Shown in pieces: positions 29,601 to 55,773 of a stretch of 64,000 nucleotides of DNA. Both the position numbers and the translations under genes were made by a program. Source of the DNA: Bacteroidaceae bacterium (GTDB lineage Bacteria; Bacteroidota; Bacteroidia; Bacteroidales; Bacteroidaceae). The stretch spans positions 23,883 to 87,882 of the forward strand of contig JAFYYH010000004.1 in assembly GCA_017557635.1 (NCBI GenBank), given 5' to 3'. The notes beneath the pieces are model-generated. The model ran no database searches, was not told the origin of the DNA, and saw only the letters and a program-made list of their open reading frames with translations. Every line of letters begins with the position of its first letter. Position 1 is the first letter of the stretch.

Positions 29601-29636
29601 CACCGCTATCGGGCGCTTAATCAATCCCTTGAACAT
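26601..29636 (-). CDS. RND efflux permease (first subunit)
   Basis: 1011-residue AcrB/MdtB-type permease beginning MFKGLIKRPIAVSMVLIAVM. RND blocks include RKLPVSLVPDINIPQITVQV, the TM4 segment LVLGLGMMVDNSIITIDNIT with a single Asp, and GMVVMCGIVINDSILKVDTI in the second half. It begins six bases after the adaptor gene and overlaps the next permease by four bases. Confidence 0.93.
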   Translation of the reverse strand: MFKGLIKRPIAVSMVLIAVMVLGIAAIRKLPVSLVPDINIPQITVQVTSPDRSARELNEALMAPLRSNLSQVAHLKDIVCTAKDGGGLIEMTFDYGADADYIFIDVNDRVDRATQGWGAGEERPLIARASATDIPAFFINISLKDSKHTGGTRMLEMSDFCRQVITRRLEQLPQVAMVDISGVLYPQLLIIPDMEKLRAIGADENTLSSAIQSAKVNLGSLSIRDGEYRFDVRFESNVVTREDVENVWLKLGGRTYQIKDLAEVREEQQRAKGMISADGEPAISMAVIKRTDARMAELRDGIQDLMQVFEREYPDLNFQITRDQTELLDYSINNMVRNLIFGALFACIIIFFFMQDFRSPLLVVITIPTALILSFLFFFVLNISINIISLSGLVLGLGMMVDNSIITIDNITQRWMKGEPLADACVYGTQEVFTPMLSSVMTTCAIFIPLIFMSGIAGALFYDEAMAVTITLISALIMSVLVIPVFYYRFYRNQPCFTPNKFISKISVGNMTKGYDAILSWFFRHRGVMWSIFAAAVVLIGVLFINLDKQKLPTLSHSDSLLNIEWNERISLEENNRRCEQILAQFPDEITQYTAMTGSQQFALSHTREMGISEATIYIKAQGTKEIDRIEAEANDYITREWPLAVHSSQASGNIFDMLFSDKEAPLVARIKNTDGTTPEPEQLSSLLYALRAALPEQYIPQPEWNEYIELITDPERLALYDVSFGQVLSYLQNSMNAGSVLRISKGDFSMPVVIGVGTKEARDLIQGSYIVTGGGRVPLEILLKETRNRDLKQVTSGVDGEFYPLVLDVKGREARHAMDVIKKVVREDDRFDVSFAGTYFSNREMIKELCTVLVISILLLFFILAAQFESLIQPFIILSELIIDIFAVLGILWLFGESINLMSMIGMVVMCGIVINDSILKVDTINRLREQGMGLKHAILEAGGRRLKAIIMTSLTTILAIAPFLVRGDMGSDLQYPLSLALISGMIAGTFVSVFFVPLAYYVIYKKSDR

Positions 29637-32251: not shown

Positions 32252-32303
32252 GTCTGCAAACAAAGTTTCTAGTTAGTAAAATGGGTTAACAGCGCGAATT
32301 TAA

Positions 32304-32684
32304 TTATTTTGTATGACCTTTCACCGCAATTGCCAGGAAATCTTCCTGGCCCGATGCCTGAACATACACATATTTAATGAACTCACCCGGATTCTCCACC
32401 GCTACCTTGACCTCAAGCTTACCGCACTCGCGCGGCTTGAGCCTCATGATATCGGTGTTAAGGGTAGTACAGTCACACTCGGTCATGAAAGAGAGGGCAA
32501 TCTGCTCCTTTCGGTTGTTACGGAACGTAAATGACGCCTTTACGGAATCACCCACGGTCGCCTGGCCCACGTCCACTATCTCACGGCGTACGGTGAACGC
32601 AGCGTCAGAATCATTGCAACCTGTCAGCAGCGGTGCTGCAGACAGGATTGCAAGAAAAAGGCCATTGATAATTCTGTTATTCAT
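32304..32684 (-). CDS. DUF1573 lipoprotein
   Basis: 126 residues from ATG (a GTG six bases upstream is in frame). Signal MNNRIINGLFLAILSAAPLL then lipobox TGC. The body is the DUF1573 immunoglobulin-like domain: VDVGQATVGDSVKASFTFRN, SFMTECDCTTLNTDIMRLKP and GEFIKYVYVQASG. The conserved CDC pair is present. Envelope protein of unknown role, probably co-transcribed with the pump genes. Confidence 0.85.
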   Translation of the reverse strand: MNNRIINGLFLAILSAAPLLTGCNDSDAAFTVRREIVDVGQATVGDSVKASFTFRNNRKEQIALSFMTECDCTTLNTDIMRLKPRECGKLEVKVAVENPGEFIKYVYVQASGQEDFLAIAVKGHTK

Positions 32685-32752
32685 AATCACTAGGTCAATA
32701 TAATGTAATCACAGTTCTTTAAGATTTTATTTTTCTGATCGGCTCAGCCCAG

Positions 32753-33541: not shown

Positions 33542-34585
33542 TCAGTCCGTGATTGTATAACTGAAGTATTGTTCCAGGTCACTGACTATATACGGAAATC
33601 TTATGGGATTGCCTCCGTATAACTTCTCCAGACGGAAAGACTGGTCCGACGCGGAATACTGCGCCATCATATCCATCCTGTATTTCTTAAGTACCTCTTT
33701 TTCAACCAGTTTCTGTATTGGAAGCACATCCGTTTCATCCAGTTTGTATGAGCGCTTAAAGTATTCCAGTGCAAGATCCTCGTCTCCACGAGCCTCCTTG
33801 ATGCACCCCAGATAATACCAGGTCCTGTTCAGCGAAGGCATCTCCCTTAGCACCCATTCCATCAGAGATTCTGATTTATCCAGGTCACCCATGGTGTAAT
33901 ACAGCTTTCCAAGCCTTGCGGCAACAAGCGGATCCTCAGTCCGGTCATACTCATCCTTCAGTTTTTTGACCGCAGTCGTTAAGGATTGTTCCGCCAATGC
34001 AGAATCGTTCCTTCTCAAATCTGCAAAAAAGCGGCTCTCAGTGATGTCTGTAAAGCGTTCTATCGCTTTTGAGAAATAATACGCAGCAGCATCCCTGTTA
34101 CCGGTCAGTTCATTCAACCATCCGGTAACCAGCAGCACCTCACGGGTTGAGTAAGACTCACCCGCAAAAGGTTCCAACACCTCCAGTGCCGCTGCATAAT
34201 GTCCTTTCATCATAGCATTCAATGAATAATTCAATGCAAATACCGGTTCATACGGAAACATTGAATAGATGTCACCCACCAGTTCATCCAGTGAATAGTC
34301 CAATCTTTCATTCCGGTTTCCGCCGGCGGCCAGTGATTTGAATAAATCTGAATCAATTGAATCCAGTTTAGCGTAAAAGCAGCATAAATTGAGTTTGTAG
34401 AGCGGATTAAGCTCATTCAGTTTAATGGCTTTCTTTTCCAGAGCGACGGATTTTTCCATATCCGTAACGCTGCAAGCATACAGATTTTTCTTTTCAGCGC
34501 TGTTCTGCACTATTATCAGGGAGTAAAGCGCCTCAAAAAGAAGAACCATCGATACAATGATCGTAAACCTAAATTTTCTTTTCAT
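33542..34585 (-). CDS. TPR protein, membrane-anchored
   Basis: 347 residues from ATG at 34585. N-terminal anchor MKRKFRFTIIVSMVLLFEAL then YSLIIVQ. About seven TPR-like helix pairs follow, for example AKLDSIDSDLFKSLAAGG, REVLLVTGWLNELTGNRDAA, AARLGKLYYTMGDLDKSESL and WYYLGCIKEARGDEDLALEY. TPR domains mediate protein contacts; here probably assembly of the envelope export machinery. The start lies 17 bases inside the O-antigen-ligase-like gene. Last gene of the operon. Confidence 0.75.
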   Translation of the reverse strand: MKRKFRFTIIVSMVLLFEALYSLIIVQNSAEKKNLYACSVTDMEKSVALEKKAIKLNELNPLYKLNLCCFYAKLDSIDSDLFKSLAAGGNRNERLDYSLDELVGDIYSMFPYEPVFALNYSLNAMMKGHYAAALEVLEPFAGESYSTREVLLVTGWLNELTGNRDAAAYYFSKAIERFTDITESRFFADLRRNDSALAEQSLTTAVKKLKDEYDRTEDPLVAARLGKLYYTMGDLDKSESLMEWVLREMPSLNRTWYYLGCIKEARGDEDLALEYFKRSYKLDETDVLPIQKLVEKEVLKKYRMDMMAQYSASDQSFRLEKLYGGNPIRFPYIVSDLEQYFSYTITD

Positions 34586-35792
34586 ACCGGCAAACAGGAT
34601 AAACACTCAAAAACATAATTATAATCGTAAGAAGCGGTAAACAGTTATTTTCAAAAATCGAACTGAAGAAAAACTCATGAACCAACAGGGCGGCAAAAGC
34701 AGCTATGAAAGGAATCGTGTCAACTTTCTTTCGGGCCGACACCACAGACCCCACAATGAAAGCCACTATACCAATCAGGTAACATATGCCACCCAGCAAA
34801 CCCTTCTCGGCCAGCACCTGGAGATAACTGTTGGTTGACCGGAAAGAGAGGGCGTTATACTCTTTTTTGCCATACAGGGCCGATGCCTGCTGATAATTGC
34901 CGCTGCCGTATCCCAGATATGGCCTTGACTTGAACAGATCCACGGCTTCCTGCCACTTGCCAAGGCGTGCATCGGTACTGCGGTGCTGAACGGTAGTCCT
35001 GTTCAGGGAGAGTGTAGTAAGCACTGATTCCTTATCAGACATCATAACACTGCCCAAAGAGATGGTAAGAGTACATGCTGCAATACATATGAACTTAACC
35101 ATAACCTTTCTGTGAAACAGAAGTATCGCGCCAAAAGCAGTCAGGTAGAAGAAGAACAGTGAAACATAGCCTCCGCGGGAGAAACTTACCAGTATCACCA
35201 CGTTCATGGCGATGAATGTAAGCAGGCCCAGTATCCTGACATAAATGTTTCCGTTTCTGAGAATAAGCGTCAGTGATGCAGGCAGCAGGCATATCAGAAT
35301 TGCAGTCCAGTCATTTGATATTATTCCCAAAGGCCTGTAGTACTGCCTGACAGAAGTAAGGTCAGTGTACCCCATTTCCATGAATGCAGCCCTATGCTTC
35401 AGATAGGTTATCATTGTTATGACGGCCATCACCAGTGATGTCAGCAACAAGGTTTTTATCATAACAGCAACCTGTGACCTGTCAGTAATGAAATACCTCA
35501 TGTAAAACCACAATGTTACAATTCCTATCAGACGCGCACATGCATCCACGCTTTTGGGTACATAACCGGAGTAAATTGACGCCGCCAGTTCCGCCGCACA
35601 GATCAACAGCAATGAGACATCAAGAAAACTGATCCTGAAAACCCTTTTGTCTGCAGGTCTGCGTATGCACATGAGTACGGCCAACGGGAGTACTATGCAC
35701 CAAGACACCATCTTGAAGCATCCCAGAACAACCAGCACAGTCAGAATAATGGCCGGAAGCAGGATCAATTGTTCACTTTTATTATTCGTCAT
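34569..35792 (-). CDS. O-antigen ligase / Wzy family membrane protein
   Basis: 407 residues with about 11 hydrophobic helices. The large periplasmic loop has the Wzy_C-type sequence RSTDARLGKWQEAVDLFKSR then PYLGYGSGNYQQASALYG, typical of O-antigen ligases, polymerases and protein O-oligosaccharyltransferases. No sugar-transfer genes are nearby, and the gene overlaps the C39 exporter gene by 11 bases, so its substrate could be an exported peptide or its partner. That is an inference from position only. Confidence 0.78.
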   Translation of the reverse strand: MTNNKSEQLILLPAIILTVLVVLGCFKMVSWCIVLPLAVLMCIRRPADKRVFRISFLDVSLLLICAAELAASIYSGYVPKSVDACARLIGIVTLWFYMRYFITDRSQVAVMIKTLLLTSLVMAVITMITYLKHRAAFMEMGYTDLTSVRQYYRPLGIISNDWTAILICLLPASLTLILRNGNIYVRILGLLTFIAMNVVILVSFSRGGYVSLFFFYLTAFGAILLFHRKVMVKFICIAACTLTISLGSVMMSDKESVLTTLSLNRTTVQHRSTDARLGKWQEAVDLFKSRPYLGYGSGNYQQASALYGKKEYNALSFRSTNSYLQVLAEKGLLGGICYLIGIVAFIVGSVVSARKKVDTIPFIAAFAALLVHEFFFSSIFENNCLPLLTIIIMFLSVYPVCRYEKKI

Positions 35793-37974
35793 CGCTCAAT
35801 CTGTTCCAATACTGACTGTAGAAATTGTCAGACTTCATAAGTTCCTTATGGGCACCCTGAACGGATACGCTGCCATTCTCCAGTACAACAATGTTATCAC
35901 TCAACAGTCTGGCAGTCTCCAGTCTGTGTGTAACAAAGATTATGATGTTGTCCTTCTTAAGCTCCTTGAGCAGGTCACATACAAAAGACTCGGTCCTGCG
36001 GTCCATAGCTGATGTTATCTCATCCAGGATAATGACCTTGTGATTTCTGTACAGAGCCCTTGCCAAAGCCACAAGCTGCTTCTGTCCGCCCGACAGGTTA
36101 ATACCCTCTTCACCTACCAGGGTAAACACACCTGCAGGCAGTTCATTGAAGTATTTTGTAAATCCGTATTTGTCACAGAACTCAAAAATATCCTGCGGAT
36201 TCTCAAGTTTCTCACCAAAGCAGATATTGTCAAGGATAGTTCCGTTATACAGGAATACATCCTGGGGAACATAAGATACAACGTTATGCCATGAATCCGA
36301 GTCAATGTCCGAAAGGTCAACTCCGTCAACCATAATTTTTCCGGATTCAGGCTTGTAGAAGTTCTCTATGATCTGGCACAATGAACTCTTGCCGCATCCG
36401 CTCTCACCTATGATGCTGGTAATGGTACCCTTTTCAAATGAGAGTGACACATCGTTAAGCAGGCGCTTTCTGCCTGTAAAGCGGAATGAAAGATCATCAA
36501 TCTCAATCTTGTCGGCAGCCACGTCCATAACTTTCTTCTCAGTATCATCCGCCTCCTGCTCATCCTGAGTGTCAACAAACTCAAACATACGCTGGAAGGC
36601 AACCTTAGCCTCGTTGATAGGTATGATTGCTGACGCAATCCTAGACATCTCGGACAGAATGTTAGTTGACATGCTTACCATTGCCATCATTACACCTACG
36701 GTCAAGGCATCCTTGAATACAAAGTAGGAGCAGAGTGACAATAACAGGATCTGGAAGAAAGAGTTGGACAAGCCGGTCTCTACACCAATCTTTACGTTGG
36801 TTCTGCCCAGGGAGTATGCCTGATCCTGGAAATTTGAGAACAGACTGTAGTTGTTGTCAAGGAACCTGCCCTCCTTTGAGTAACTCTTAATGTCAGTAAT
36901 ACCGTTTACAGTATTGATAAGGCTGCTTTCACTTGCGGCATAGGCACTCATGGTGCTACGCTGCTGCTGCAGGATCTTCTTGTTCCTCTTTATGATAACC
37001 CAGAAGAACAACGGAGAGAAACAGATTACCAGCAAACCTATTTTCCAGGAATAATGGAACAGGAATATGGAATAGATAAGTACGGTAAGAGCGCTGATTG
37101 TAGTGCTGTTGACCAATGTGCTTATTATTGACTGCAGTCTTCTGGTATCACCCAGACGTGAAAGTATCTCACCTACTTTTCTTGTATCATAGAAATATTT
37201 GGGCAGTCTGAGCAGTTTTCTCAGAAAGAACTTTGTAATCCTGTTGTTGAAACCGCGGCTTTGTTCAAGTAACAGCTTGCCTCTGAAAGAGCCCAGCATT
37301 ACCATTATAAGGTTAATCACCAGAATCGACGACAAACCGATGATGAGTTTGACCAACTCTTTGTTTACGAGTATCGAGTCTATCAGTTTCTGAGAGAATA
37401 TGGTCATTGCCAAACCCAGCAGGGTTGTAATGATGCCTATGATCAGGCTGACTGAGAACAGGCCGTAATCATCACGCACCAGGTTCTTTATCCACTCAGT
37501 CTTTCTCTGCAGTATGGAAGTCTTCTTTTCGAATGAAAGGTTCGGTGTCAGGATGAGACATTTTTTGGTCCATATCTCTTCAAGTTCCTGCTCGGAAACC
37601 GTCTTGACTCCTTCGGCCGGATCTCCAATCAGGAAATTGCCGTCTTTATATGAAAAGAGAGTTACATAATGACTCAACACTTTTTCTTTAACTACCGACA
37701 GTATGCAGGGAGCATCCAGTTTTTTGAGTTCATCCACGCTGTCAACCACTGCACCAAAAGCGTCAAAGCCCATGGTTTTGGCTGCCTGGCACAGTCCCAG
37801 AAGGGTTGTTCCGGTGCTGGAGGTTCCGCTTATTTCACGCAGATGCATGATGCTTGAATCGCCGTTATAGTATTTGATCATCATAAGCAGGCAGGCAACG
37901 CCGCAGTCTGAAAAATCATGCTGCTCTACAAATGATGCGTTTATTCTTTTCTTATTGTTGTATTTCATATTCAT
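35782..37974 (-). CDS. C39-peptidase ABC transporter for double-glycine peptides
   Basis: 730 residues. N-terminal C39 peptidase: VEQHDFSDCGVACLLMMIKY (Cys24), HYVTLFSYKDGNFLIGDPAE (His near 101, Asp near 117), which cuts after Gly-Gly leaders. Then six transmembrane helices (about 160-430) and an ABC domain with Walker A IIGESGCGKSSL (near 526), signature LSGGQKQLVALARALY (near 628), Walker B KVIILDEITSAMD (near 650) and H-loop FVTHRLET. It should process and export the four peptides at 38629-40535 encoded in the same operon. Directly follows the thioredoxin-like gene by 31 bases. An SP with outer-membrane partner such as a TolC or HlyD in the cluster is not seen. Confidence 0.95.
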   Translation of the reverse strand: MNMKYNNKKRINASFVEQHDFSDCGVACLLMMIKYYNGDSSIMHLREISGTSSTGTTLLGLCQAAKTMGFDAFGAVVDSVDELKKLDAPCILSVVKEKVLSHYVTLFSYKDGNFLIGDPAEGVKTVSEQELEEIWTKKCLILTPNLSFEKKTSILQRKTEWIKNLVRDDYGLFSVSLIIGIITTLLGLAMTIFSQKLIDSILVNKELVKLIIGLSSILVINLIMVMLGSFRGKLLLEQSRGFNNRITKFFLRKLLRLPKYFYDTRKVGEILSRLGDTRRLQSIISTLVNSTTISALTVLIYSIFLFHYSWKIGLLVICFSPLFFWVIIKRNKKILQQQRSTMSAYAASESSLINTVNGITDIKSYSKEGRFLDNNYSLFSNFQDQAYSLGRTNVKIGVETGLSNSFFQILLLSLCSYFVFKDALTVGVMMAMVSMSTNILSEMSRIASAIIPINEAKVAFQRMFEFVDTQDEQEADDTEKKVMDVAADKIEIDDLSFRFTGRKRLLNDVSLSFEKGTITSIIGESGCGKSSLCQIIENFYKPESGKIMVDGVDLSDIDSDSWHNVVSYVPQDVFLYNGTILDNICFGEKLENPQDIFEFCDKYGFTKYFNELPAGVFTLVGEEGINLSGGQKQLVALARALYRNHKVIILDEITSAMDRRTESFVCDLLKELKKDNIIIFVTHRLETARLLSDNIVVLENGSVSVQGAHKELMKSDNFYSQYWNRLSDDE

Positions 37975-38005
37975 AACTTCTTTTCAAAAAAAGGAGATTT
38001 TACAT

Positions 38006-38521
38006 TTATTTCAACCAATCTACCAGGACAGAGGATTCCATTCCTCCGTAGTTACTGTTTACAAGAACGCCTTCCTTGTCATATATGAATATGGCGGGCG
38101 GTCCTACAACCTGATATAAGGTGTGATATTTGGGAGAGTCCTCAAGCAATATCACTGAGTTTTCCAGTTTATCAATAGGAGTGTTTTCCAGGAAATATTC
38201 CATTTCATCCTCCATAAAGGCAAAGGAGATGAAAACCCATCTGTTATCGGGATATGAATCCCTGTTCTTTAAGATCTCATTCAGTTCCGTTTCACATATA
38301 CCGCACTCAGGGCTGAAAAACAGCACTACGGTCTTTCCCTTGGTATAGTCATTTACAACAGTATATGCATCTCCCATATATTGCCTGGCGGTAATTTCCG
38401 GCAGCATCTCCTTGGGAGCGGTATCTTCATTACCGGTCTTTGTGTATACCTTGACGGATATGGCACAAACAACCAGCAACAGAATGATGATTCGGGATAT
38501 TTTAAAACTTTTGGTTTTCAT
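38006..38521 (-). CDS. Membrane-anchored thioredoxin-fold protein with CGIC motif
   Basis: 171 residues. Signal or anchor at residues 10-27 (IIILLLVVCAISVKVY). The fold is TlpA/AhpC-like: GKTVVLFFSPECGICETELN (Cys near 72 and 75), RWVFISFAFMED, and VVGPPAIFIYDKEGVLVNSN with the cis-Pro. It should act in the periplasm as a thiol-disulfide oxidoreductase. Between the peptide genes and the exporter, so the natural substrates are the CxxC pairs of those peptides. Confidence 0.85.
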   Translation of the reverse strand: MKTKSFKISRIIILLLVVCAISVKVYTKTGNEDTAPKEMLPEITARQYMGDAYTVVNDYTKGKTVVLFFSPECGICETELNEILKNRDSYPDNRWVFISFAFMEDEMEYFLENTPIDKLENSVILLEDSPKYHTLYQVVGPPAIFIYDKEGVLVNSNYGGMESSVLVDWLK

Positions 38522-38558
38522 AAGATCTTAAGATTATCTTGATTAATGATCATTTTAA

Positions 38559-38611
38559 TTATTTCATTGCAGTCAATTCTGTCATATGCAGCCTTGACTG
38601 CAATGAAATAA
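38559..38611 (-). terminator. 18-bp-stem hairpin between peptide D and the thioredoxin gene
   Basis: Arms 38559-38576 and 38594-38611 (TTATTTCATTGCAGTCAA and its exact complement), 17-nt loop. It lies 18 nt after the peptide D stop. A near-identical copy follows peptide A (40232-40284). No long T-run follows, so partial termination or mRNA end protection is more likely than full termination. Confidence 0.65.
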
Positions 38612-38628
38612 CCAAAACAGGTGATTAA

Positions 38629-38859
38629 TTACTCACCCATAACAGCGTTGAGGCAAGGAGTGCAAGCAAGTGCAACATCAATTGATGATGCTATTGCAGC
38701 GATAATTGAACCAACCAGGGTAAAGGCTGAACCTTCGGCAATTAAAATACCGGCCTGTGCAAGTGCTCTGTAGCAATTGAGGCAAACATCCTGCTTGAGT
38801 GCATCCGGATTCCAACCACCTGAAATTTCCACCATCTGATCATTAGTCAATGTAATCAT
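38629..38859 (-). CDS. Double-glycine leader peptide D with two CxxC motifs
   Basis: 76 residues. Leader MITLTNDQMVEISGG (15 residues, Gly-Gly at 14-15), mature part 61 residues. CxxC motifs at 26-29 (CLNC) and 66-69 (CTPC). Between them is a small-residue-rich hydrophobic helix, AFTLVGSIIAAIASSID. Very similar to peptide A. The leader fits the C39 exporter in the same operon. Possible bacteriocin or signalling peptide; function not shown. Confidence 0.88.
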   Translation of the reverse strand: MITLTNDQMVEISGGWNPDALKQDVCLNCYRALAQAGILIAEGSAFTLVGSIIAAIASSIDVALACTPCLNAVMGE

Positions 38860-38905
38860 AATAATTAAGTTTTAAAAAGTTAATAAATAATTGATAATTA
38901 ATGAA
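38860..38905 (-). repeat. Conserved AT-rich leader before peptide genes (copy D)
   Basis: The 40-50 nt before each of the four peptide ATGs are nearly the same: on the minus strand TTAACTTTTTAAAACTTAAT with TATTATG at the start codon. Other copies: 39153-39205 (C), 39454-39505 (B) and 40536-40585 (A). The match is evidence that each peptide gene arose by duplication with its own ribosome-binding leader. Confidence 0.75.
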
Positions 38906-38921
38906 TTATATAAATAATACA

Positions 38922-39152
38922 TTACTCTGCCATAACTGCATCAACGCAAGGCTTGCAGCTTGTATAAATGTCCAATGAATGAATCAGAGCAGCAATAAGG
39001 CAACCTACAAAGGAGAGAGTTGCACTCTTTGCAACTGTCATGCCGGCCTCAATGAGGGCTCTATAGCAATTAAGGCAAACGTCCTGCTCAAGAGCATCCC
39101 AGTTCATACCACCTGCAATTTCTACCATCTGATCATTAGTTAATGTTGTCAT
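38922..39152 (-). CDS. Double-glycine leader peptide C with two CxxC motifs
   Basis: 76 residues; leader MTTLTNDQMVEIAGG, mature 61 residues. CLNC at 26-29 and CKPC at 66-69; hydrophobic middle LSFVGCLIAALIHSLDIY. It has an extra Cys in the middle (near 50), unlike its paralogues. Ends in VMAE. Confidence 0.87.
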   Translation of the reverse strand: MTTLTNDQMVEIAGGMNWDALEQDVCLNCYRALIEAGMTVAKSATLSFVGCLIAALIHSLDIYTSCKPCVDAVMAE

Positions 39153-39216
39153 AATAATTTAAGTTTTAAAAAGTTGATAATAAGTTGATAATAAATAGTT
39201 TAGTTAAATAAATGAA

Positions 39217-39453
39217 TTACTCTCCGATAACGGCCTGTACGCAAGGCTTGCAGCTCAGGTAAACGTCGCTTCCAATTACCAGCGCAGCAATGATAGCGCC
39301 TACAACGGTCGCTGCTGAACCCTCGGCAATTGCAACACCGGCCTCAAGAAGTGCTCTGTAGCAGTTAAGGCAAACCTCCTCACCCAGTGCATCGGGATTC
39401 CAAGTCCAACCACCTGCAATTTCTACCATCTGATCATTTGTTAATGTTGTCAT
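39217..39453 (-). CDS. Double-glycine leader peptide B with two CxxC motifs
   Basis: 78 residues; leader MTTLTNDQMVEIAGG, mature 63 residues starting WTWNPDALGEEV. CLNC at 28-31 and CKPC at 68-71; hydrophobic middle AATVVGAIIAALVIGSDVY with Gly spacing suited to helix packing. Confidence 0.88.
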   Translation of the reverse strand: MTTLTNDQMVEIAGGWTWNPDALGEEVCLNCYRALLEAGVAIAEGSAATVVGAIIAALVIGSDVYLSCKPCVQAVIGE

Positions 39454-39528
39454 AATAATTTAAGTTTTAAAAGTTAATAATAAGTTGATTATAAATTAAT
39501 TAGTTAAGTTTTTGCAAACAAGGACCCA

Positions 39529-40182
39529 TCAGAAGGCTATTATGGTCGATACTGCAACGAACAGCAGCATCATTACTCCGTATGTCTTCAATACAAAGGA
39601 GATTGACTCCATGAATGAGTATTTAAAGTTTCTGTGAACCAGGAATCCCAGGAAGAGCATGTACAGTATCTCCTGAAGGTTTACTGAGAGCAACAGAATG
39701 TACAACCAGGTCTGGGTCTCCTTCAATGCTGCGGCATCAAACCAGTGCAGCAGGGACATTGATTCAAAAAGACTCTGTGAATGTTGTTCCAATGTGACAA
39801 TGTCAACTGTTGACATGGCGGCATAGAACAGGATGAAAACCAACATGGATTTTACTGAAACCATCCAACAGGTAGAGAATTCCTTCTTTCCGGCAGGTGA
39901 CTTGACCATCTGTACCACATAGAAGCAAACACTAACTGCAACTATGCGTACAATGATCTCCAGCGGTTTCTCCAGATAAACAATCCATTTGCTCCTCTGA
40001 ATGGACTCCAATACCATTGCTACTATGTCGGCGGGAGCCTCAGGATCCAGTTTCTCAAATAGTACGGGAAAAACTATTTTGTTCTCAAGATACAGGAAGA
40101 CAGTGGCAATCAGCATATAGCCTACTATCCAGAACAGTGATCTCAAGCCTTTATTTTCTTTTATACTGTTAACTGCTATCAT
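39529..40182 (-). CDS. Multi-pass membrane protein in peptide operon (candidate immunity or assembly factor)
   Basis: 217 residues, no family recognised with certainty. Hydrophobic segments at about 14-32, 75-93, 108-126, 150-178 and 195-215, giving five likely membrane spans. Located between peptide genes A and B in the same direction. Small polytopic proteins in this position are often immunity proteins in bacteriocin operons, but a role in export or maturation is equally possible. Confidence 0.6.
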   Translation of the reverse strand: MIAVNSIKENKGLRSLFWIVGYMLIATVFLYLENKIVFPVLFEKLDPEAPADIVAMVLESIQRSKWIVYLEKPLEIIVRIVAVSVCFYVVQMVKSPAGKKEFSTCWMVSVKSMLVFILFYAAMSTVDIVTLEQHSQSLFESMSLLHWFDAAALKETQTWLYILLLSVNLQEILYMLFLGFLVHRNFKYSFMESISFVLKTYGVMMLLFVAVSTIIAF

Positions 40183-40231
40183 AAGACCGAAATGATTTGA
40201 TAATGATTATCCTGATTAATGATCATTTCAA

Positions 40232-40284
40232 TTATTTCATTGCAGTCAATTCCATCAAATGCAGCCTTGACTGCAATGAAATAA
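40232..40284 (-). terminator. 18-bp-stem hairpin between peptide A and the membrane protein gene
   Basis: Arms 40232-40249 and 40267-40284, same stem as at 38559-38611, loop differing in a few bases. It lies 20 nt after the peptide A stop. Confidence 0.65.
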
Positions 40285-40304
40285 TCAAAACAGGTGATTC
40301 CTAA

Positions 40305-40535
40305 TTACTCACCCATAACAGCGGTAAGGCAAGGATTGCAGGCAACTGCAACATCAATTGATGATGCTATTGCAGCGATAATTGAACCAACCAGGGTAAA
40401 GGCTGAACCTTCGGCAATTACAAAACCGGCCTGTGCAAGAGCTCTGTAGCAATTGAGGCAAACGTCCTGCTTGAGTGCGTCCCAGTTAACACCACCTGAA
40501 ATTTCTACCATCTGATCATTAGTCAATGTAATCAT
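40305..40535 (-). CDS. Double-glycine leader peptide A with two CxxC motifs
   Basis: 76 residues; leader MITLTNDQMVEISGG, mature 61 residues starting VNWDALKQDV. CLNC at 26-29 and CNPC at 66-69. Differs from peptide D at only a handful of positions, and the similarity continues through the 3' hairpin, so A and D are a recent duplication. Confidence 0.88.
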   Translation of the reverse strand: MITLTNDQMVEISGGVNWDALKQDVCLNCYRALAQAGFVIAEGSAFTLVGSIIAAIASSIDVAVACNPCLTAVMGE

Positions 40536-40636
40536 AATAATTTAAGTTTTAAAAGTTAATAAAAAGTTGATAATTAATTAGTTAAATACAATAGAAGTAG
40601 TTGAGCTCATTTCTACCAATATTATTTCTTCACAAA

Positions 40637-41743
40637 TTATTTCATCTCATAGTACACAAGCACCGGGTTGTCATCTTTCTGTTTTCTGACAGCCTTGATT
40701 ATTTCCTTAGCCAACGGGGAGGGATCAACAGTTTCATCAATGAAACTTTCCACATCTCCTGATATCAGGGTTATGAAACCCTTATCCGTAATACATTTTG
40801 GGATCATTGCATATTTCAGACCCGGAATATGGAATCCCTTCAGATGAGTAACGCCACTCTTGGTCTCACGGTAGAATCTGTAGTCAACTTCCTTTTTCAG
40901 GAGAGTACTGTACCAGAATGAGGTACCGGTTTTTCCATAATGGGGGTAATACAATCCTCTGTATTTATCAGGATTCTCAAACAGGTAAGAGAGATACACG
41001 TTCACGTCTCCGCTGTAGAACTCTGTTTCCGCTCCGTCTCTTCCATAGTTATACTCCTTCAGTACACCCAGACTGTCTTCGGTAATCTCACACAGATAAT
41101 TGGTTTCATCAAACAGGGTGATAATACCATTCTTTCTGGAATAACTTTCTATCTCTACGTCGCTGTTGTTATACTGGAAAGAGGTCAGGTTACAAACTTT
41201 GCGGATAATATCCTGTGTTTTTACGTCAAAGAGATAAAAGCCCAGGTCTTCCTCATTCTTAAGAGCCAGCAGCAGGGTCTTTTTGTCATATACCCTCAGT
41301 GCTCCGATCTGATACGGTGCCTTTATGGTTTCCAGATACTCCATCTTGGGCACTGAATAACACATGATTGAGTTGAGGTCAGTATTGGGGACCAGGTACA
41401 GGATCTTATTCTCACTGTCGTACCCAATCTTTCTGATCATGGTGTATTCACCTCGACCACGGCCCACTGCCTTAAGGACTCCTTCAAGTTTGTTGTCTTT
41501 GAAATAATAGACGTTGTGATACAGTTCATCCACCATGAACAGTTCATCACCGTAGCATTGCAGCATGGAGCAACCGCCTAAAGGATCGTCACTTACCAGA
41601 GGAACCACCTTGACGTTCTCGGTTACATCCTCAAACTGGACGTCTACTGCTTCTTCGGGATTGATGGTGACGCCATCAATGTGCTTCTGTCCACATGATA
41701 CTATGAACAAAGCTGTCGATAAGAATAAAAGAGACTTTTTCAT
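40637..41743 (-). CDS. Six-bladed beta-propeller lipoprotein
   Basis: 368 residues with signal MKKSLLFLSTALFIVSCGQK and lipobox IVSC. The repeats GDELFMVDELYHNVYYFKDN, GRGRGEYTMIRKIGYDSENK and KILYLVPNTDLNSIMCYSV are those of the Bacteroidetes six-bladed propeller family (BF3897/NHL-like). Such lipoproteins often lie next to secreted-peptide genes in this order. Probably binds a peptide or glycan at the envelope. 101 bases upstream of peptide A, same strand. Confidence 0.82.
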   Translation of the reverse strand: MKKSLLFLSTALFIVSCGQKHIDGVTINPEEAVDVQFEDVTENVKVVPLVSDDPLGGCSMLQCYGDELFMVDELYHNVYYFKDNKLEGVLKAVGRGRGEYTMIRKIGYDSENKILYLVPNTDLNSIMCYSVPKMEYLETIKAPYQIGALRVYDKKTLLLALKNEEDLGFYLFDVKTQDIIRKVCNLTSFQYNNSDVEIESYSRKNGIITLFDETNYLCEITEDSLGVLKEYNYGRDGAETEFYSGDVNVYLSYLFENPDKYRGLYYPHYGKTGTSFWYSTLLKKEVDYRFYRETKSGVTHLKGFHIPGLKYAMIPKCITDKGFITLISGDVESFIDETVDPSPLAKEIIKAVRKQKDDNPVLVYYEMK

Positions 41744-41791
41744 AATTAAAATGTTTATTGATTATTTACTGATTTGTTATTCAAAACCATA

Positions 41792-43780
41792 TTACCACCA
41801 CTCCATCATGCCTTCTGAGTCTATGACGAACGGCCTTTCCTCCTTTCCTCTTGAAATGTTACTCAGCCACAGCAGTGCCTGCGGAACGTCCTCATAACGG
41901 AGGTAGTTGTCAGTTGCACGTTGAACGCCCATTGATTTCCATTCGCCATTCAGGAAGTATTTCAATTCATACGTATCACCGGGAATTATGTCGTTACCGT
42001 CACCGCGCGGAACTACGCGTACATACTTGGGGGCCACCTTACCGGCAAAGTTCAATCCTACCCATGCGTTGTCAGGCTGGTCCCAGGCAGTCTCATAATT
42101 TGTCAGCCAATCATTGTCAAAAGCGTTCCTTGCTGATCCCAGATCACCTGATGAGCACATGGGAGTTCCGTCAATCCGGACAGTATCCTTGTCAAAGAAT
42201 GTCAGTTCGGCTATGCTTCCGCTGGTGCCGTCTGCACCCAGGTAACGCCAGTACTTGTGCGGGCCGTCAACCTCTATCATCATCTTGTCGGGGATAGTGA
42301 CACTGTCAATGGTCAATACTGTATGGCAGTCCGAGAAATCCTCCTTGTCAGCATACTGGATCTGACCGCCCAATATCTTGTCGCGCTGGGTCACCACGTT
42401 GTATGAGGAGTAGTACTTTCTGCGCAGCGTTAGCGTACGTGTGGATTCCTGAGTTCCGGTAATGAACCTTACGGAACCGTCCTTGTCCAGCACAAACGGA
42501 TCAGATATAGGGCTCAATGTCCTGCCGTCATATCCCAAGGCAATGTACATGTTGTTGATTCCCATGTTCCTGAAATGTGCCTTTCCGCGCTTTACCTCGC
42601 CAAAGTCAAGTACTGACCAGTCAGAATACTGTCCGTTGAACTTGGCTATGTAGGCATATTTCTCCTTCAGGCTTATGTATTTAGTCCCGTCAGATTTCCT
42701 GTTCACGGGTATTACAATGTCATGGGTACGGTTGTACTTGTCTGTTACATCCATGCTGGTTACCAGGAAAGGATGCTGCAGTTTTGATTTTGATTTATAC
42801 TTGGCAACTTCCCAGTTGATGGTATAACCGTTTCTCCAAACCTTGGGAATGCGCTCATACGGATAGAACTGAATTCCGGCCGGCATTATCAGGGAGTTTA
42901 CCGTTGGCTGCTCACGGCCGCGGTCATCAAGGAATACATACCAGGCGTGGCCGTTGCAGTTTCTGCCCCATTCAGGAACCTCGTCTATGACTGCCGGCAG
43001 TCCCAGGCTCCTGAATCCCAATACACCCAGAGTTACATAGTCTTTGCATGAACCGAATGTCATGCCCAGCATGGTTTCTGCGCTAAGGAATCCCAGTCCG
43101 CTTGTTGATCCCCAGTAAATGTGAGGTATCACCTTGTTGTTGATTTCATTGCGGACAATGTCTATTGTATGGTATATTGTACTCTCTTTATCATCCTGAT
43201 AGGTGAATGTCGAGATACTGTCAGAGAAGGTTGATGAGAATATGCCACGCCAATCATCAAATGCCTGCTTCTCGGTTTCCTTGTATGGTAACAGCCAGAT
43301 GCAGAACTCATCAAATGTCAGCTGTCTGCTCCAGGGTCTGGTTTTCCACTGGTCATAAGCGTGGTCAATGTTATGTATCAGATAATCAGAAGTAATGACT
43401 GCGCAATCTGATATCACACCTCTTGTCACTTTGTTGAACCTGTTGAATGATACTCTCTTAAGGTACTCTCGCTGCTCATCCACACTCATGTCTGACTTGA
43501 ATACATCAAGAGCAATATCGTAATAAGCATTGATTGAGTCTGTCCTGTATGAAAGGTGAGCGGGCATGTTCTCAATGAGGAACTTTGCTGCTGCCAGTTT
43601 CTCCGGGTTGGGATCAACCGTCTTGTAATGGTTCAACACTGCCTTCAGTTCGGTCTTATTACTACCCGCAGCCTTCATGGCCCAACGAAGATGTTTCTGT
43701 TCTTCACTACAGCCACTGAATGCTACGAGTAATAATGTTGCAAACAAGGCATAAATGGATTTTCTCAATAGGGTATTCAT
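41792..43780 (-). CDS. Transglutaminase-like lipoprotein, catalytic residues intact
   Basis: 662 residues from ATG at 43780. Signal MNTLLRKSIYALFATLLLVA then lipobox FSGC. Residues about 30-210 are helical; the transglutaminase-like core has FGSCKDYVTLGVLGFRSLG (Cys near 244), NCNGHAWYV (His near 277) and FLDDRG (Asp near 286). After beta-rich segments the C-terminal 130 residues resemble a discoidin (F5/8-type) module: ELTFFDKDTVRIDG, ARNAFDNDWLTNYET and YVRVVPRGDGNDI. The enzyme could cross-link, cleave or transfer on peptides or peptidoglycan stems. ATG overlaps the upstream stop by four bases. Confidence 0.85.
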   Translation of the reverse strand: MNTLLRKSIYALFATLLLVAFSGCSEEQKHLRWAMKAAGSNKTELKAVLNHYKTVDPNPEKLAAAKFLIENMPAHLSYRTDSINAYYDIALDVFKSDMSVDEQREYLKRVSFNRFNKVTRGVISDCAVITSDYLIHNIDHAYDQWKTRPWSRQLTFDEFCIWLLPYKETEKQAFDDWRGIFSSTFSDSISTFTYQDDKESTIYHTIDIVRNEINNKVIPHIYWGSTSGLGFLSAETMLGMTFGSCKDYVTLGVLGFRSLGLPAVIDEVPEWGRNCNGHAWYVFLDDRGREQPTVNSLIMPAGIQFYPYERIPKVWRNGYTINWEVAKYKSKSKLQHPFLVTSMDVTDKYNRTHDIVIPVNRKSDGTKYISLKEKYAYIAKFNGQYSDWSVLDFGEVKRGKAHFRNMGINNMYIALGYDGRTLSPISDPFVLDKDGSVRFITGTQESTRTLTLRRKYYSSYNVVTQRDKILGGQIQYADKEDFSDCHTVLTIDSVTIPDKMMIEVDGPHKYWRYLGADGTSGSIAELTFFDKDTVRIDGTPMCSSGDLGSARNAFDNDWLTNYETAWDQPDNAWVGLNFAGKVAPKYVRVVPRGDGNDIIPGDTYELKYFLNGEWKSMGVQRATDNYLRYEDVPQALLWLSNISRGKEERPFVIDSEGMMEWW

Positions 43781-45126
43781 AATGTATTGTTTTTCCATTT
43801 ATCTAAATTTTGGGAATTAAGCGTATCAGCGCTTATGTACTCGATACTGTTATCCTTATGCAGGATAAAGGGTTCACTGATTGGAATAAGGGTATTGCCG
43901 TCAAATCCCTGGATCTGGTACAGAACCTCACGACCCATGTCGTGGAATGTGGCCTTACCATCCTGCATGACACCAAAGTCAACTATCTGCCAGGGACTGT
44001 CCTCACTGCGCACGGCCGATGCAATGTAGACGTATTTGTCCATGACATGCTTCTGTATGCCCTGCTCTATCGGAATGGACAGGTTTGTAGTCAGGAAATA
44101 CTTTGAAGTAACATCCTTCTTGGCAAGTTCAAACGGATACTGGTACTTGGCGTTACGGCTGTACTCCAGTCGCTCCGGGTTTATGGCGTATGTATTGCGG
44201 TACACCTTGGGGCCACGCTCGTACGGGAAGAAACTGCCGCCTATCTGAGTTGAGAAATCCCACTCCGAGGCAAGTTCCTGACCGCGGTCAGACATAATCA
44301 CAAACCACTTGGTTGCTGCTGTGCCGCGTGATCCCACGGGAGTTTCATCCAAAACTGCAGGAATGCCTGCGCTACGCATAATCAGGACTGCCGTGAGAGC
44401 ATAATCCGGAATGTTGCCGTAGGTCTGGACGGCCTGCAGGTGGGCGCTCAACAATGGGAGTCCTGCCCGGGTATAGAGTCCGTAACGCTTAAGACCGTTA
44501 TAGGCATCATTACGCAGCATGTCTGCTATTCCTTGCGCCGTATTATACTCTACGTCGTTTACAATTGGATGTTCAAGGCCTTTCCCGAAACGAGCAAGCA
44601 GCGTGTCACGCCATGCGTCCAGTTCCTGGAGCTCTATGGCCTTGTAAGGCAAGAGCCACTCCAGATACTCGTCAAAAGTAATCTGACTTGCCCAGTCACA
44701 GTTAACCCACCTGTCGTATGAAATGTCGATGTTGTTGATCAGGTAATCAGCTTTGATTATCTTAACATCAGACACAATTTGACCAGGCAGGTCGCGATAC
44801 TTAAGATCTGTGATGGAAAGCAGGCTGTCACGCTGCTGCTCGGGGGAGAGAGACTTATTAGCAAGGATTCTTGCTGCGTAATCATAGTATTCGTATATCT
44901 CGTTACCTGCATAGGAGTAATGGGCAGGCATGTTCTCTATCAGAAACTCTGCGGCGCGGAGTTTCTCAGGGTTGTTGTCCTGGGTCTTGTAGTGGTCCAG
45001 CACAGCCTCCAACTCTGAACGGTTGGAGCCGGCTGAATCCAGTACACTTGCAACAGGAGAGATGTCGTTGCAGCCGGTTGCTATGGCTGCCGTCAGCAGC
45101 AATGCTGACAAATCAATTTTTTTCAT
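43777..45126 (-). CDS. Transglutaminase-like lipoprotein, catalytic residues lost
   Basis: 449 residues with signal MKKIDLSALLLTAAIATGCN (lipobox ATGC). Clearly a paralogue of the next gene: LEAVLDHYKTQDNNPEKLRA matches LKAVLNHYKTVDPNPEKLAA. In the core, the Cys-containing FGSCKDYVTLG becomes YGNIPDYALTA and GHAWYVFLDDRG becomes ATKWFVIMSDRG, so Cys and His are gone while the second Asp-Arg-Gly remains. It lacks the C-terminal discoidin-like part. Likely a pseudoenzyme that binds the same ligand or the active paralogue. First gene of the long operon, 58 bases after DUF3244 gene 2. Confidence 0.82.
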   Translation of the reverse strand: MKKIDLSALLLTAAIATGCNDISPVASVLDSAGSNRSELEAVLDHYKTQDNNPEKLRAAEFLIENMPAHYSYAGNEIYEYYDYAARILANKSLSPEQQRDSLLSITDLKYRDLPGQIVSDVKIIKADYLINNIDISYDRWVNCDWASQITFDEYLEWLLPYKAIELQELDAWRDTLLARFGKGLEHPIVNDVEYNTAQGIADMLRNDAYNGLKRYGLYTRAGLPLLSAHLQAVQTYGNIPDYALTAVLIMRSAGIPAVLDETPVGSRGTAATKWFVIMSDRGQELASEWDFSTQIGGSFFPYERGPKVYRNTYAINPERLEYSRNAKYQYPFELAKKDVTSKYFLTTNLSIPIEQGIQKHVMDKYVYIASAVRSEDSPWQIVDFGVMQDGKATFHDMGREVLYQIQGFDGNTLIPISEPFILHKDNSIEYISADTLNSQNLDKWKNNTL

Positions 45127-45184: not shown

Positions 45185-45580
45185 TTAATACAGAGTGTAT
45201 TCTCCGTAATATTTCCGTCCGTTGGACAGAGTAAATGTCAGTATGTATGTTCCGGGATCTGTTGATACGCTAATAGTAAGCATATTTCCCATATCGGAAT
45301 CACTCCACATCATATTATCCTCCACGCGTACTACTGACGCTGTAATACCATCAATGTTCTCGGGTGCCAGAATGGTAACCTCGCCTTCAAAATAGGAGCA
45401 AGCCGGTACCTCATATATATAATGTGCACGTGCACGCGCTCTAGGACCACCGCCTTGGCTAGTTGTAGGATCTGGTACTACTGGAATGTTATCCGGTTCT
45501 CCGCCCGCCCATGCGTTTGTCTGAAAACAAGGTAAAACTACCATCATTACCACTAACACTCTTTTTACAAAATTCTTCAT
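45185..45580 (-). CDS. Small exported DUF3244-like protein, copy 2
   Basis: 131 residues from ATG at 45580. Signal MKNFVKRVLVVMMVVLPCFQ ending AWA, then VVPDPTTSQGGGPRARARAH and the immunoglobulin-like domain ending PGTYILTFTLSNGRKYYGEY. Same organisation as the gene at 32847, including promoter and terminator upstream. Since it precedes the long operon without an obvious terminator between, its promoter could serve the whole operon. Confidence 0.75.
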   Translation of the reverse strand: MKNFVKRVLVVMMVVLPCFQTNAWAGGEPDNIPVVPDPTTSQGGGPRARARAHYIYEVPACSYFEGEVTILAPENIDGITASVVRVEDNMMWSDSDMGNMLTISVSTDPGTYILTFTLSNGRKYYGEYTLY

Positions 45581-45649
45581 ACGACTTAACAATTAGGTTT
45601 AATAATCAGGTTATTGTTTAGGTTAACTTTTTCGTTCTTGGTTCTGATG

Positions 45650-45813: not shown

Positions 45814-47508
45814 TTACCAGATGTCATTTAAATAGCTCCATAACTCCTCGGAGCAGCGTCTTACTTTCTTCAATAATCTGGATTTGATCTGATAGATGTT
45901 TTGTGGTGATTCCTTAATAATGACGCTTATGGCCTTTGATGACAATCCTGCAAACGAATATCTGAACAGTTCAAGTTCCTTGTCAGTAAGTCCTATCTCC
46001 GGATCTGCCAGACGGTCCATAATGCCGTCATATGACTCATTTAGCAGCTTGTCCAGTTTCCTTACACTATCCGGAGCCGTATAATCCTTAATAAGGCTGT
46101 TGATTGTTACGTTTAATTGCTGTTTGGTAACCTTATCCTGGCTTGTAGAGTCAAAATACATTGAATACAGGCGGTTTGATATGTCATGACGCTCATGAAA
46201 CTGTACGCGTACCTGATTCTTCAGGTCCTCTATCTTGCCTGACAACTCTTCGACTACAGACAGAGAGTCATACAACTGCTCTTTCATGCGTTTTTTCTTG
46301 TAATGGTAAGTAACCAGTACAATTACAAGGATCAACAGGAATATTACCACGCAGAGTACCAATGTCAGGCGGGCATGTCTGTACTTTAGCAGCTCATTCT
46401 CCGCCATCATCCTGTACTGCTCCTTTTGTGCAGCCAGAATGGGTTGACTCAGAATAGTACGCAGATTTGAGTTTTGCATTGTATTATATTCGCGGTAATA
46501 ATCCAATGCCTTTTCCGCCTCACCCTTCTTTTCGGCCAGCGTAGAAGCTACAAAATAGAGATATATTGAATCATTACCTGACAACTTGCACTGCCAGGCA
46601 CGCTCCAGATAATCCTCAGACTTGGCATAATCCTTTACTGTTATGTAATACATTGCCATCATCTCCAGATAGGCAAACGTATTTGTTTTTTTATCCAGAA
46701 GACCGTTCCTGCTCAGCAAATCCGTTGCGCTGTCAGGCTTTTCCATATATACAAGACATGCCACCCTACTGCTCAAGCACAGATTATGCAACGTACTATC
46801 GCCGTTTTCTACAGACTTATTATCTACAATCCTCAATATGGAATCTGCACTGGTGTACTCCTGCATATTATTCTTAGCCTGTCCTACGCTCAGCATAGCA
46901 TATAACCTATGCTGTTCCTTACCGGCAAGTTCAAAATAAGAAGCGGCCTTGGAATAATAATCTTCAGCTCTATGGTAATCACACGCTTCAGTAAACACAT
47001 AACCCAGTCTGGAATATAGAAGACCCTTCCAATGATTATTGTCAATATAACCAACCAATTGTTCTGCATTGGCAAAAGCGGCACCGGCATCGGATAATTG
47101 ATTCAGATCCAGATATACACAACCCAAATAATAATTGGAAAGGAATCTGTAATCCATATTGTTTCTGATGGAGTAATAGCGTACAGCCGTCATTATAAGA
47201 GAATCACTATGGGCAACGTGATAGTTTTTATACTCTGATCCGGTATAAAGTAATGCATAACGTGCCCTGTTCTCCTTACTTCCTAATGAGTTTGGATCAA
47301 CCAGATTAATAAGTGAATCTGCTAATGCAGCATTATCGTCTATCACTTTTTCAACCAAATCCATTACGGTACTAACAGCCTTACGGCCACGAATCATACC
47401 ATCATTTACACGACTGCAACTAACCTCAAAAAGTGATAAAGCCACAAAGAATATCAGACAGCCCGGAAAAAACAGCTTCCGGATTGAGAATAAATTAGAT
47501 TTATGCAT
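45814..47508 (-). CDS. TPR-transmembrane-HTH regulator 1
   Basis: 564 residues. Signal anchor at 12-32 with a lipobox-like EVSC. TPR helices from about 60 to 350 (SNYYLGCVYLDLNQLSDAGA, LYSRLGYVFTEACDYHRAED). A strong transmembrane helix near 383-405 (LTLVLCVVIFLLILVIVLVT), a coiled coil near 410-445, and a C-terminal LuxR-like HTH: LTDKELELFRYSFAGLSSKA then ISVIIKESPQNIYQIKSRLL. The layout suggests an envelope sensor with a cytoplasmic DNA-binding tail. It lies directly before the peptide operon, its likely target. Confidence 0.8.
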   Translation of the reverse strand: MHKSNLFSIRKLFFPGCLIFFVALSLFEVSCSRVNDGMIRGRKAVSTVMDLVEKVIDDNAALADSLINLVDPNSLGSKENRARYALLYTGSEYKNYHVAHSDSLIMTAVRYYSIRNNMDYRFLSNYYLGCVYLDLNQLSDAGAAFANAEQLVGYIDNNHWKGLLYSRLGYVFTEACDYHRAEDYYSKAASYFELAGKEQHRLYAMLSVGQAKNNMQEYTSADSILRIVDNKSVENGDSTLHNLCLSSRVACLVYMEKPDSATDLLSRNGLLDKKTNTFAYLEMMAMYYITVKDYAKSEDYLERAWQCKLSGNDSIYLYFVASTLAEKKGEAEKALDYYREYNTMQNSNLRTILSQPILAAQKEQYRMMAENELLKYRHARLTLVLCVVIFLLILVIVLVTYHYKKKRMKEQLYDSLSVVEELSGKIEDLKNQVRVQFHERHDISNRLYSMYFDSTSQDKVTKQQLNVTINSLIKDYTAPDSVRKLDKLLNESYDGIMDRLADPEIGLTDKELELFRYSFAGLSSKAISVIIKESPQNIYQIKSRLLKKVRRCSEELWSYLNDIW

Positions 47509-49592: not shown

Positions 49593-49622
49593 ATACAAAA
49601 AGGAAAAGGTTAACTAGTGGCG

Positions 49623-55735: not shown

Positions 55736-55773
55736 AAGCAACAATTATTGGTCATCTGTCCTATATTATGACC

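What the first reader, a model, noticed from the sequence alone, without database searches (positions are those of the whole stretch)
33542..45126. Peptide export and maturation operon with four GG-leader, double-CxxC peptides
Seen: eleven or twelve same-strand genes with short gaps or overlaps join a C39-peptidase ABC exporter, four paralogous 76-78-residue peptides (leader [MI/MT]TLTNDQMVEI[SA]GG, motifs CLNC and C[TKN]PC around a hydrophobic helix), a CGIC thioredoxin-fold protein, a five-span membrane protein, two transglutaminase-like lipoproteins, a beta-propeller lipoprotein, an O-antigen-ligase-like protein and a TPR protein. Known: C39 exporters cut after Gly-Gly; thioredoxin-fold proteins act on CxxC. 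Inferred: a multi-peptide secreted system (bacteriocin, signal or surface-assembled peptide) whose peptides are oxidised and further modified outside the inner membrane. I do not recognise this combination as a named system.
Basis: partly seen in the sequence, partly recalled or inferred. Interest (0 to 1): 0.9.

Follow-up and report, generated by a model that had tools for sequence, protein, structure and literature searches.

The report
Bacteroidetocin-type peptide module in borrowed chassis
Four small sister peptides and their dedicated export and oxidation genes, a set already known from gut bacteria's bacteroidetocin toxins, sit inside a larger envelope operon that in related bacteria serves quite different small secreted peptides, which hints at a shared, exchangeable platform for peptide secretion.

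Summary
In detail: twelve minus-strand genes (33542-45126) with four paralogous GG-leader, double-CxxC peptides. Two corrections. (1) The core is not unnamed: five-span protein, GG peptide, thiol oxidoreductase and C39 exporter, in that order, is the published bacteroidetocin gene set; homologues of the five-span protein precede TRX and C39 in 9 of 10 genomes that did not seed the search. The peptides are an orphan family, longer (61-63 aa mature) and acidic; only the leader resembles others. (2) The flanking genes are a separate chassis: in relatives a TG, a Wzy-like protein, propellers and a TolC/MFP/RND pump surround Sec-exported NVEALA-type peptides with their own signal peptidase I, or radical-SAM proteins; C39 occurs in 0 of 41 TG loci. 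One distant genome independently has the GG version. The Wzy protein groups by peptide type (100/100), TG1 mostly by host. TG2 is a conserved pseudoenzyme (11 of 11 lack the cysteine). Best reading: a multi-peptide bacteroidetocin-type antagonism module swapped into a periplasmic peptide-handling and export chassis. Module identity is well supported; killing, Wzy/TG chemistry and pump use are inferred. No structure could be predicted.

The parts
38629..38859 (-). pepA: GG-leader peptide, double CxxC, 76 aa
38922..39152 (-). pepB: GG-leader peptide, double CxxC, 76 aa
39217..39453 (-). pepC: GG-leader peptide, double CxxC, 78 aa
40305..40535 (-). pepD: GG-leader peptide, double CxxC, 76 aa; 91% identical to pepA
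39529..40182 (-). MEM5: five-span membrane protein, homologue of the TM protein found before TRX and C39 in other GG-peptide loci
38006..38521 (-). TRX: membrane-anchored thiol oxidoreductase, CGIC
35782..37974 (-). C39 peptidase ABC exporter (PCAT)
34569..35792 (-). WzyC: O-antigen-ligase-like membrane protein; clade of GG/radical-SAM-type loci
33542..34606 (-). TPR protein, separate partner of WzyC (fused to Wzy in the Sec-type loci read)
40637..41743 (-). PROP: probable 6-bladed propeller lipoprotein (indirect)
41792..43798 (-). TG1: transglutaminase-like lipoprotein with Cys/His, CBM-like and F5/8-like regions
43777..45126 (-). TG2: pseudoenzyme paralogue of TG1 (no Cys)
45185..45592 (-). 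S135: small secreted protein, also in chassis loci L060 and L061
32847..33239 (-). S130: 64% identical paralogue of S135 at the other end of the module
32304..32690 (-). DUF1573 lipoprotein, chassis
30752..32263 (-). TolC-type outer membrane factor, chassis
29643..30743 (-). MFP adaptor, chassis
26601..29636 (-). RND pump 1, chassis
23410..26604 (-). RND pump 2, chassis
   Evidence: PF00873, 8e-100
45814..47508 (-). REG1: TPR - transmembrane - weak LuxR-type HTH (below cut-off) regulator
47886..49598 (-). REG2: paralogue of REG1 (38%)
40223..40310 (-). strong RNA hairpin after pepD
   Evidence: z -6.6
38540..38635 (-). strong RNA hairpin after pepA
   Evidence: z -7.2

Best explanation
A composite of two units. 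Unit 1 (pepA-D, MEM5, TRX, C39 exporter) is a bacteroidetocin-type module: the exporter cuts each precursor after GG and passes a 61-63-residue peptide into the periplasm, where TRX, helped by MEM5, forms two disulfides between the two CxxC motifs. Unit 2 (REG, TG2-TG1, propeller, WzyC+TPR, DUF1573, TolC-MFP-RND-RND) is a chassis that in relatives handles Sec-exported NVEALA-type or radical-SAM peptides. It takes over oxidised periplasmic peptides, may attach or trim something through WzyC/TPR and TG1, and passes them across the outer membrane by the TolC-MFP-RND pump. The most likely purpose is antagonism of related bacteria by four sister peptides. Shown by sequence: gene set and order, conservation, independence of the two units, swap. 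Inferred: cleavage, disulfides, modification, pump use, killing.
For: Gene set and order equal the published bacteroidetocin regions, whose TM and thiol oxidoreductase genes are needed for full toxin activity (PMC6671954, passages; section 14). A two-row MEM5 profile hits 12 of 386 genomes; leaving out the two that supplied the rows, TRX and C39 homologues follow MEM5 on the same strand in 9 of 10 (the miss, G270, is a 4.1-kb contig). L133, found through the exporter, shows the same set. Chassis: in same-genus loci L060, L061, L062, L064 the order TG2-TG1-[cassette]-(DUF1573)-TolC-MFP-RND-RND matches the window, with a signal peptidase I in each cassette and no C39 module. In 41 TG loci, same strand within 8 kb: Wzy 28, signal peptidase 15, propeller 14, RND 14, MFP 14, TolC 9, NVEALA 9, C39 0, MEM5 0; 11 C39-anchored control loci: Wzy 0, TG 0. 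Independent recurrence: G255:C35, another family, has TG1-MEM5-WzyC-TPR-GG peptides-MEM5-TRX-C39-TolC on one strand and no signal peptidase, while its contig C130 has the Sec version with one. Trees: WzyC of the window and of G255:C35 group with the two radical-SAM loci (100/100) apart from the 29 other Wzy rows, while TG1 of the window falls with its genus and TG1 of G255:C35 with G255:C130.
Against: No peptide homologue elsewhere, so no peptide-partner co-occurrence test. Mature peptides are longer and acidic (-3 to -5), unlike bacteroidetocins A/B (42 aa, basic). No structure model, so the disulfide arrangement is untested. The link of chassis and GG module rests on two loci; TG and Wzy were found in the fetched stretch of only 1 of the 11 other MEM5 genomes. 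The window Wzy and propeller are only distantly like those of Sec loci (best E 4e-4, and no significant hit to four reference propellers), so 'same chassis' rests most on the TG pair and the pump. TG1 does not strictly follow the host: G255:C90 has a TG1 47% identical to the window's that falls in its wider clade. The bacteroidetocin four-gene set made active toxin in E. coli without any chassis. The pump could serve another substrate.
Confidence: 0.55

Rival explanations
1. Peptide signalling: the four peptides are extracellular signals read by the membrane TPR-HTH regulators REG1/REG2; the chassis exports and tunes them.
For: REG-type genes precede the TG pair in the window and in L060 and L061 at 58-61% identity; weaker hits lie in other TG loci. 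The regulators have a transmembrane stretch and a weak LuxR-type HTH. Several sister peptides could be a multi-signal set.
Against: Regulators with TPR and HTH are common in Bacteroidota (recalled). Signals are seldom 61-63 aa with four cysteines (recalled). Relatives keep the regulator with quite different peptides, so it need not sense them.
Confidence: 0.2
2. Surface or matrix peptides: the hydrophobic, disulfide-bonded peptides are linked to a surface glycan by WzyC/TG1 and stay on the cell as coat or adhesive.
For: The O-antigen-ligase-like WzyC tracks peptide type; TG1 keeps Cys/His and has carbohydrate-binding-like regions (F5/8 domain above cut-off in the G255 copy).
Against: A TolC/RND pump argues for release. 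The His of the classical Wzy_C motif (motif recalled) is absent at that place in the window protein (TNSYL) and in the 30 other rows aligned, so ligase chemistry is unsure.
Confidence: 0.15
3. Plain bacteroidetocin-type module that merely happens to sit in a recombination-prone chassis operon, with no functional link to TG, Wzy or the pump.
For: The four-gene set is sufficient for toxin production in E. coli (PMC6671954); 10 of the 11 other MEM5 genomes show no TG or Wzy in the fetched stretch. Bacteroidetocin genes move on mobile elements (same paper).
Against: Same-strand tight spacing, and the same combination arose separately in G255:C35 with TG1 of local origin; in both cases the signal peptidase is missing and a Wzy of the GG/radical-SAM clade with a separate TPR protein is present.
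Confidence: 0.1

Closest known systems
Bacteroidetocin (class IIf) regions, PMC6671954
   Same: Five-TM protein, GG peptide, thiol oxidoreductase and C39 ABC exporter in the same order; 15-residue leader; four cysteines
   Different: Four peptides instead of one, 61-63 aa mature instead of 35-50, acidic, double CxxC; beyond the leader no similarity to three peptides of such loci fetched here; embedded with TG, Wzy/TPR and a pump
NVEALA-type (PF14055) Sec-exported peptide cassettes (no paper found)
   Same: TG, Wzy-like protein with TPR, propeller lipoproteins, TolC/MFP/RND pump; often a CxxC protein that I read as thioredoxin-like (no Pfam match above cut-off)
   Different: Sec signal peptide and own signal peptidase I instead of GG leader, MEM5 and C39 exporter; Wzy of a different clade, fused to TPR
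Radical-SAM loci with TG1 and WzyC (L080, L149)
   Same: TG1 and the same Wzy clade; a 62-aa Cys-rich peptide ORF in L080
   Different: Radical SAM proteins (41% identical to each other) and, in L080, an M50-like protein (below cut-off); no C39 exporter or MEM5 by the HMM census
PCAT1/ComA-type C39 exporters
   Same: Full-length homology, C39 and ABC domains
   Different: Gram-negative host; no adaptor gene directly beside it, the MFP downstream sits with the RND genes

Membership tests
Bacteroidetocins (class IIf) | TM protein, peptide, thiol oxidoreductase, C39 ABC exporter together in this order | tested here: met
Bacteroidetocins (class IIf) | GG leader of 15-16 aa | tested here: met
   15 residues; criterion
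Bacteroidetocins (class IIf) | mature size 35-50 aa | tested here: not met
   61-63 aa; criterion
Bacteroidetocins (class IIf) | at least two cysteines | tested here: met
   at least four in each
Bacteroidetocins (class IIf) | sequence similarity to bacteroidetocin A/B or iterative relatives | tested here: inconclusive
   A/B letters not held; against three peptides of like loci only 18 leader columns align
Bacteroidetocins (class IIf) | kills Bacteroidota (BamA target) | not testable with these tools
   PMC8546649 abstract for the known ones
NVEALA peptides (PF14055) | profile match | tested here: not met
   no hit for pepA-D; hit in L078
NVEALA-type chassis | TG, Wzy, TolC/MFP/RND on one strand | tested here: met
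NVEALA-type chassis | dedicated signal peptidase I | tested here: not met
   none in window 22001-50500 by the HMM census
Transglutaminase-like enzymes | catalytic Cys and His | tested here: met
   TG1 yes (40 of 40 TG1-type rows); TG2 no (0 of 11 TG2-type rows with Cys)

The most novel reading that the evidence does not exclude
Bacteroidales carry a general periplasmic platform (TG1, Wzy-like membrane protein with TPR partner, TolC-MFP-RND pump) into which peptide modules of three kinds (Sec/NVEALA, GG/C39, radical SAM) are plugged; the Wzy-like protein is a peptide-type-specific enzyme that decorates or tethers the peptide, and the pump is the missing outer-membrane step for such peptides.
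Probability: 0.3. Interest if true: 0.85.

Novelty: new variant of a known kind. Interest (0 to 1): 0.6.

Why it matters
How Bacteroidota peptide toxins leave the cell is open: the bacteroidetocin authors could not exclude that the toxin is not actively secreted across the outer membrane and that lysis is needed (PMC6671954). A bacteroidetocin-type module sharing an operon-like cluster with a complete TolC-MFP-RND pump makes that question testable. It also gives the NVEALA-type peptides, for which a search of the held library found no paper, a first comparison with a characterised peptide class.

Tried and rejected
Rejected: NVEALA membership of the peptides (no hit above cut-off in Pfam or NCBIfam; the few listed matches were weak and unrelated). 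Plasmid location: no match of pepC or of the L103 TM protein in the plasmid collection. Peptide homologues: one other genome of 393 at E 0.006 and 18 other genomes (20 places) of 201 at E 0.002-0.099; all 21 places were read (after one search had read the minus-strand ones on the wrong strand) and are chance matches. Solved structures: none for the peptides, WzyC or PROP. Consensus scans: 55 promoter-like sites against 42.5 (sd 6.3) in shuffles and 14 terminator-like against 15.2; not used. GC content is 0.41-0.45 for most of the module (pepC 0.51) against 0.52-0.53 for MFP and RND, but TG1/TG2 (0.47-0.49), S135 (0.43) and REG1/2 (0.33-0.41) show no clear border. Literature: NVEALA (0 papers); Wzy + transglutaminase + Bacteroid + TolC + signal peptidase + radical SAM (one paper, not relevant from its title); Wzy + bacteriocin + RiPP terms (13 papers, none on this from titles and abstract starts); propeller family names and PF14055 (74 papers, 15 listed, none relevant from titles). 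Papers: PMC6671954 read as passages, abstract and section 14; PMC8546649 abstract and passages; PMC10352776 two passages; all others seen in search listings only.

Rows dropped: the 41 TG loci are my selection from the hits (69 of 201 genomes, own included), mostly the best-scoring; four are fragments of at most 6.1 kb (L083, L087, L089, L111). L149 and L151, reached through Wzy, are left out of that count. L136 duplicates L151 and was left out, as were ORFs under 400 aa. The TG1 tree used 30 selected rows. The Wzy model was built from Wzy rows found by BLAST in the same loci, so 28 of 41 is not independent of that search. In the MEM5 count G327 is set aside because it supplied one of the two profile rows (with it the count is 10 of 11).
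Full report
The sequence observation is right. Twelve minus-strand genes fill 33542-45126. In transcript order they are TG2, TG1, PROP, pepD, MEM5, pepC, pepB, pepA, TRX, C39 exporter, WzyC and a TPR protein. The other three peptides are 59-91% identical to pepA, with dN below dS in all six pairs, so they are selected genes. pepD and pepA are recent copies, duplicated together with a strong hairpin downstream.

What the core is. A published family, the bacteroidetocins, is made by four genes: a five-TM protein, a GG peptide with a 15-16-residue leader and at least two, in A and B four, cysteines, a thiol oxidoreductase and a C39-type ABC exporter, in this order; loss of the TM or oxidoreductase gene weakens the toxin, and neither confers protection (PMC6671954, passages, section 14). 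The window has MEM5, pepC/B/A, TRX, C39 in exactly that order, plus pepD upstream. MEM5 has distant homologues: it resembles the TM protein of L103 (23% over 73 residues), and a profile of these two hits 12 of 386 genomes of the order, the two source genomes included. In 9 of the 10 others TRX and C39 homologues follow on the same strand. L133, found through the exporter (42% identity), shows TM protein, GG peptide with four cysteines, TRX and C39. The window peptides share only the leader with three such peptides (18 columns, hhalign probability 7.5) and are longer and acidic, so I call the module bacteroidetocin-type and not a bacteroidetocin.

What surrounds it. TG1 hits 69 of 201 genomes of the family, own included. 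In same-genus loci L060, L061, L062 and L064 the frame is TG2, TG1, cassette, then (DUF1573 in L060 and L061) TolC, MFP, RND, RND as in the window. Each cassette holds a signal peptidase I (Pfam), and all but L061 a Wzy-TPR protein. In L060 and L062 there is also a small secreted protein, a propeller-type lipoprotein (DUF5128 in L062; TolB-like below cut-off in L060) and a CxxC protein that I read as thioredoxin-like without Pfam support. A true NVEALA match (PF14055) is in L078. Over 41 TG loci, same strand within 8 kb: Wzy 28, signal peptidase I 15, propeller 14, RND 14, MFP 14, TolC 9, NVEALA 9, C39 0, MEM5 0. Among 11 control loci chosen by the C39 exporter neither Wzy nor TG was found.

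A second GG version. G255:C35, from another family of the order, carries on one strand TG1, an ABC/adaptor set, MEM5, WzyC, a separate TPR protein, four GG peptides, MEM5-TRX, two more GG-type peptides, MEM5-TRX-C39, ABC and TolC, with several long unassigned ORFs between. WzyC and TPR match the window's at E 7.6e-28 and 1.2e-13; its WzyC and TG1 are confirmed by Pfam, the latter through its F5/8 domain. The same genome has a Sec version at C130 with signal peptidase, Wzy and RND pump, and at C90 a TG1 with signal peptidase but no Wzy in the 12 kb fetched. Radical-SAM versions occur at L080 and L149: their radical SAM proteins are 41% identical, L080's above the Pfam cut-off and L149's just below in the ORF as called. 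So three peptide types share TG1 and a Wzy protein.

The two trees differ. In the Wzy tree (33 rows) the window, G255:C35, L080 and L149 form one clade (100/100) apart from the other 29, including those of the window's own genus and G255's Sec-type copy. Branches are long, and the window-G255 pairing itself has only 82/43. In the TG1 tree (30 rows) the window falls in a set of 11 rows that are all of its genus or genome (88/100), and G255:C35 with G255:C130 (100/100). Host order is not strict: G255:C90 falls in the wider clade of the window's genus. The simplest reading is that in two lineages a GG block with its own Wzy and TPR was placed behind a resident TG1. This suggests that the Wzy protein works with the peptide, but not what it does.

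Enzymes. All 40 TG1-type rows keep Cys and His; all 11 TG2-type rows have Ile for Cys and only one keeps His, so TG2 is a conserved pseudoenzyme. TG1 residues 473-536 resemble a family 6 carbohydrate-binding module (1.3e-9). The window WzyC keeps an SRG and a TNSYL motif; the classical His (recalled) is absent at that place in all 31 aligned rows, so a ligase reaction is only a hypothesis.

Mechanism. Most likely: cleavage after GG and export to the periplasm by the C39 exporter; oxidation of the two CxxC motifs by TRX with MEM5; possible modification by WzyC/TPR and TG1, with TG2 and PROP as binding partners; exit through TolC-MFP-RND; use as a four-peptide weapon against relatives. The first two steps rest on the tested bacteroidetocin precedent; the rest is inference. 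Rivals are peptide signalling to REG1/REG2, surface-attached peptides, and a module that only happens to sit in this operon.

Limits. No structure could be predicted. The peptides have no found homologue. The link of chassis and GG module rests on two loci.

Noticed in passing
window 40223-40310 and 38540-38635 (-): Two hairpins with stems of about 25 pairs follow pepD and pepA (the 95-nt repeats are 94% identical); z-scores -6.6 and -7.2. Perhaps an mRNA end, processing or attenuation element that sets peptide dose over downstream genes.
   Followed up: partly
window 45185-45592 and 32847-33239 (-): Two 64% identical small secreted proteins lie at either end of the module; relatives of the first are in chassis loci L060 and L061.
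   Followed up: partly
L056 (own genome, contig C6): A second TG2-TG1 pair without any peptide cassette or pump in the 19.5 kb fetched.
   Followed up: partly
TG2-type proteins, window 43777-45126 and ten relatives: A transglutaminase-like pseudoenzyme with Ile for Cys in all 11 rows, directly before TG1 in 10 of them; L082 shows it without a TG1 behind it.
   Followed up: partly
L080 5198-6768 (+): Radical SAM protein followed by a 62-aa ORF with a Cys-rich tail beside TG1 and a Wzy protein: a possible unrecognised RiPP locus.
   Followed up: partly
L135/L151 (G255:C35): One contig with six GG-type peptide genes, three MEM5 copies, two TRX and one C39 exporter on one strand.
   Followed up: partly
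window 49688-55744 (-): 2018-aa alpha-2-macroglobulin-like protein upstream of the regulators.
   Followed up: no
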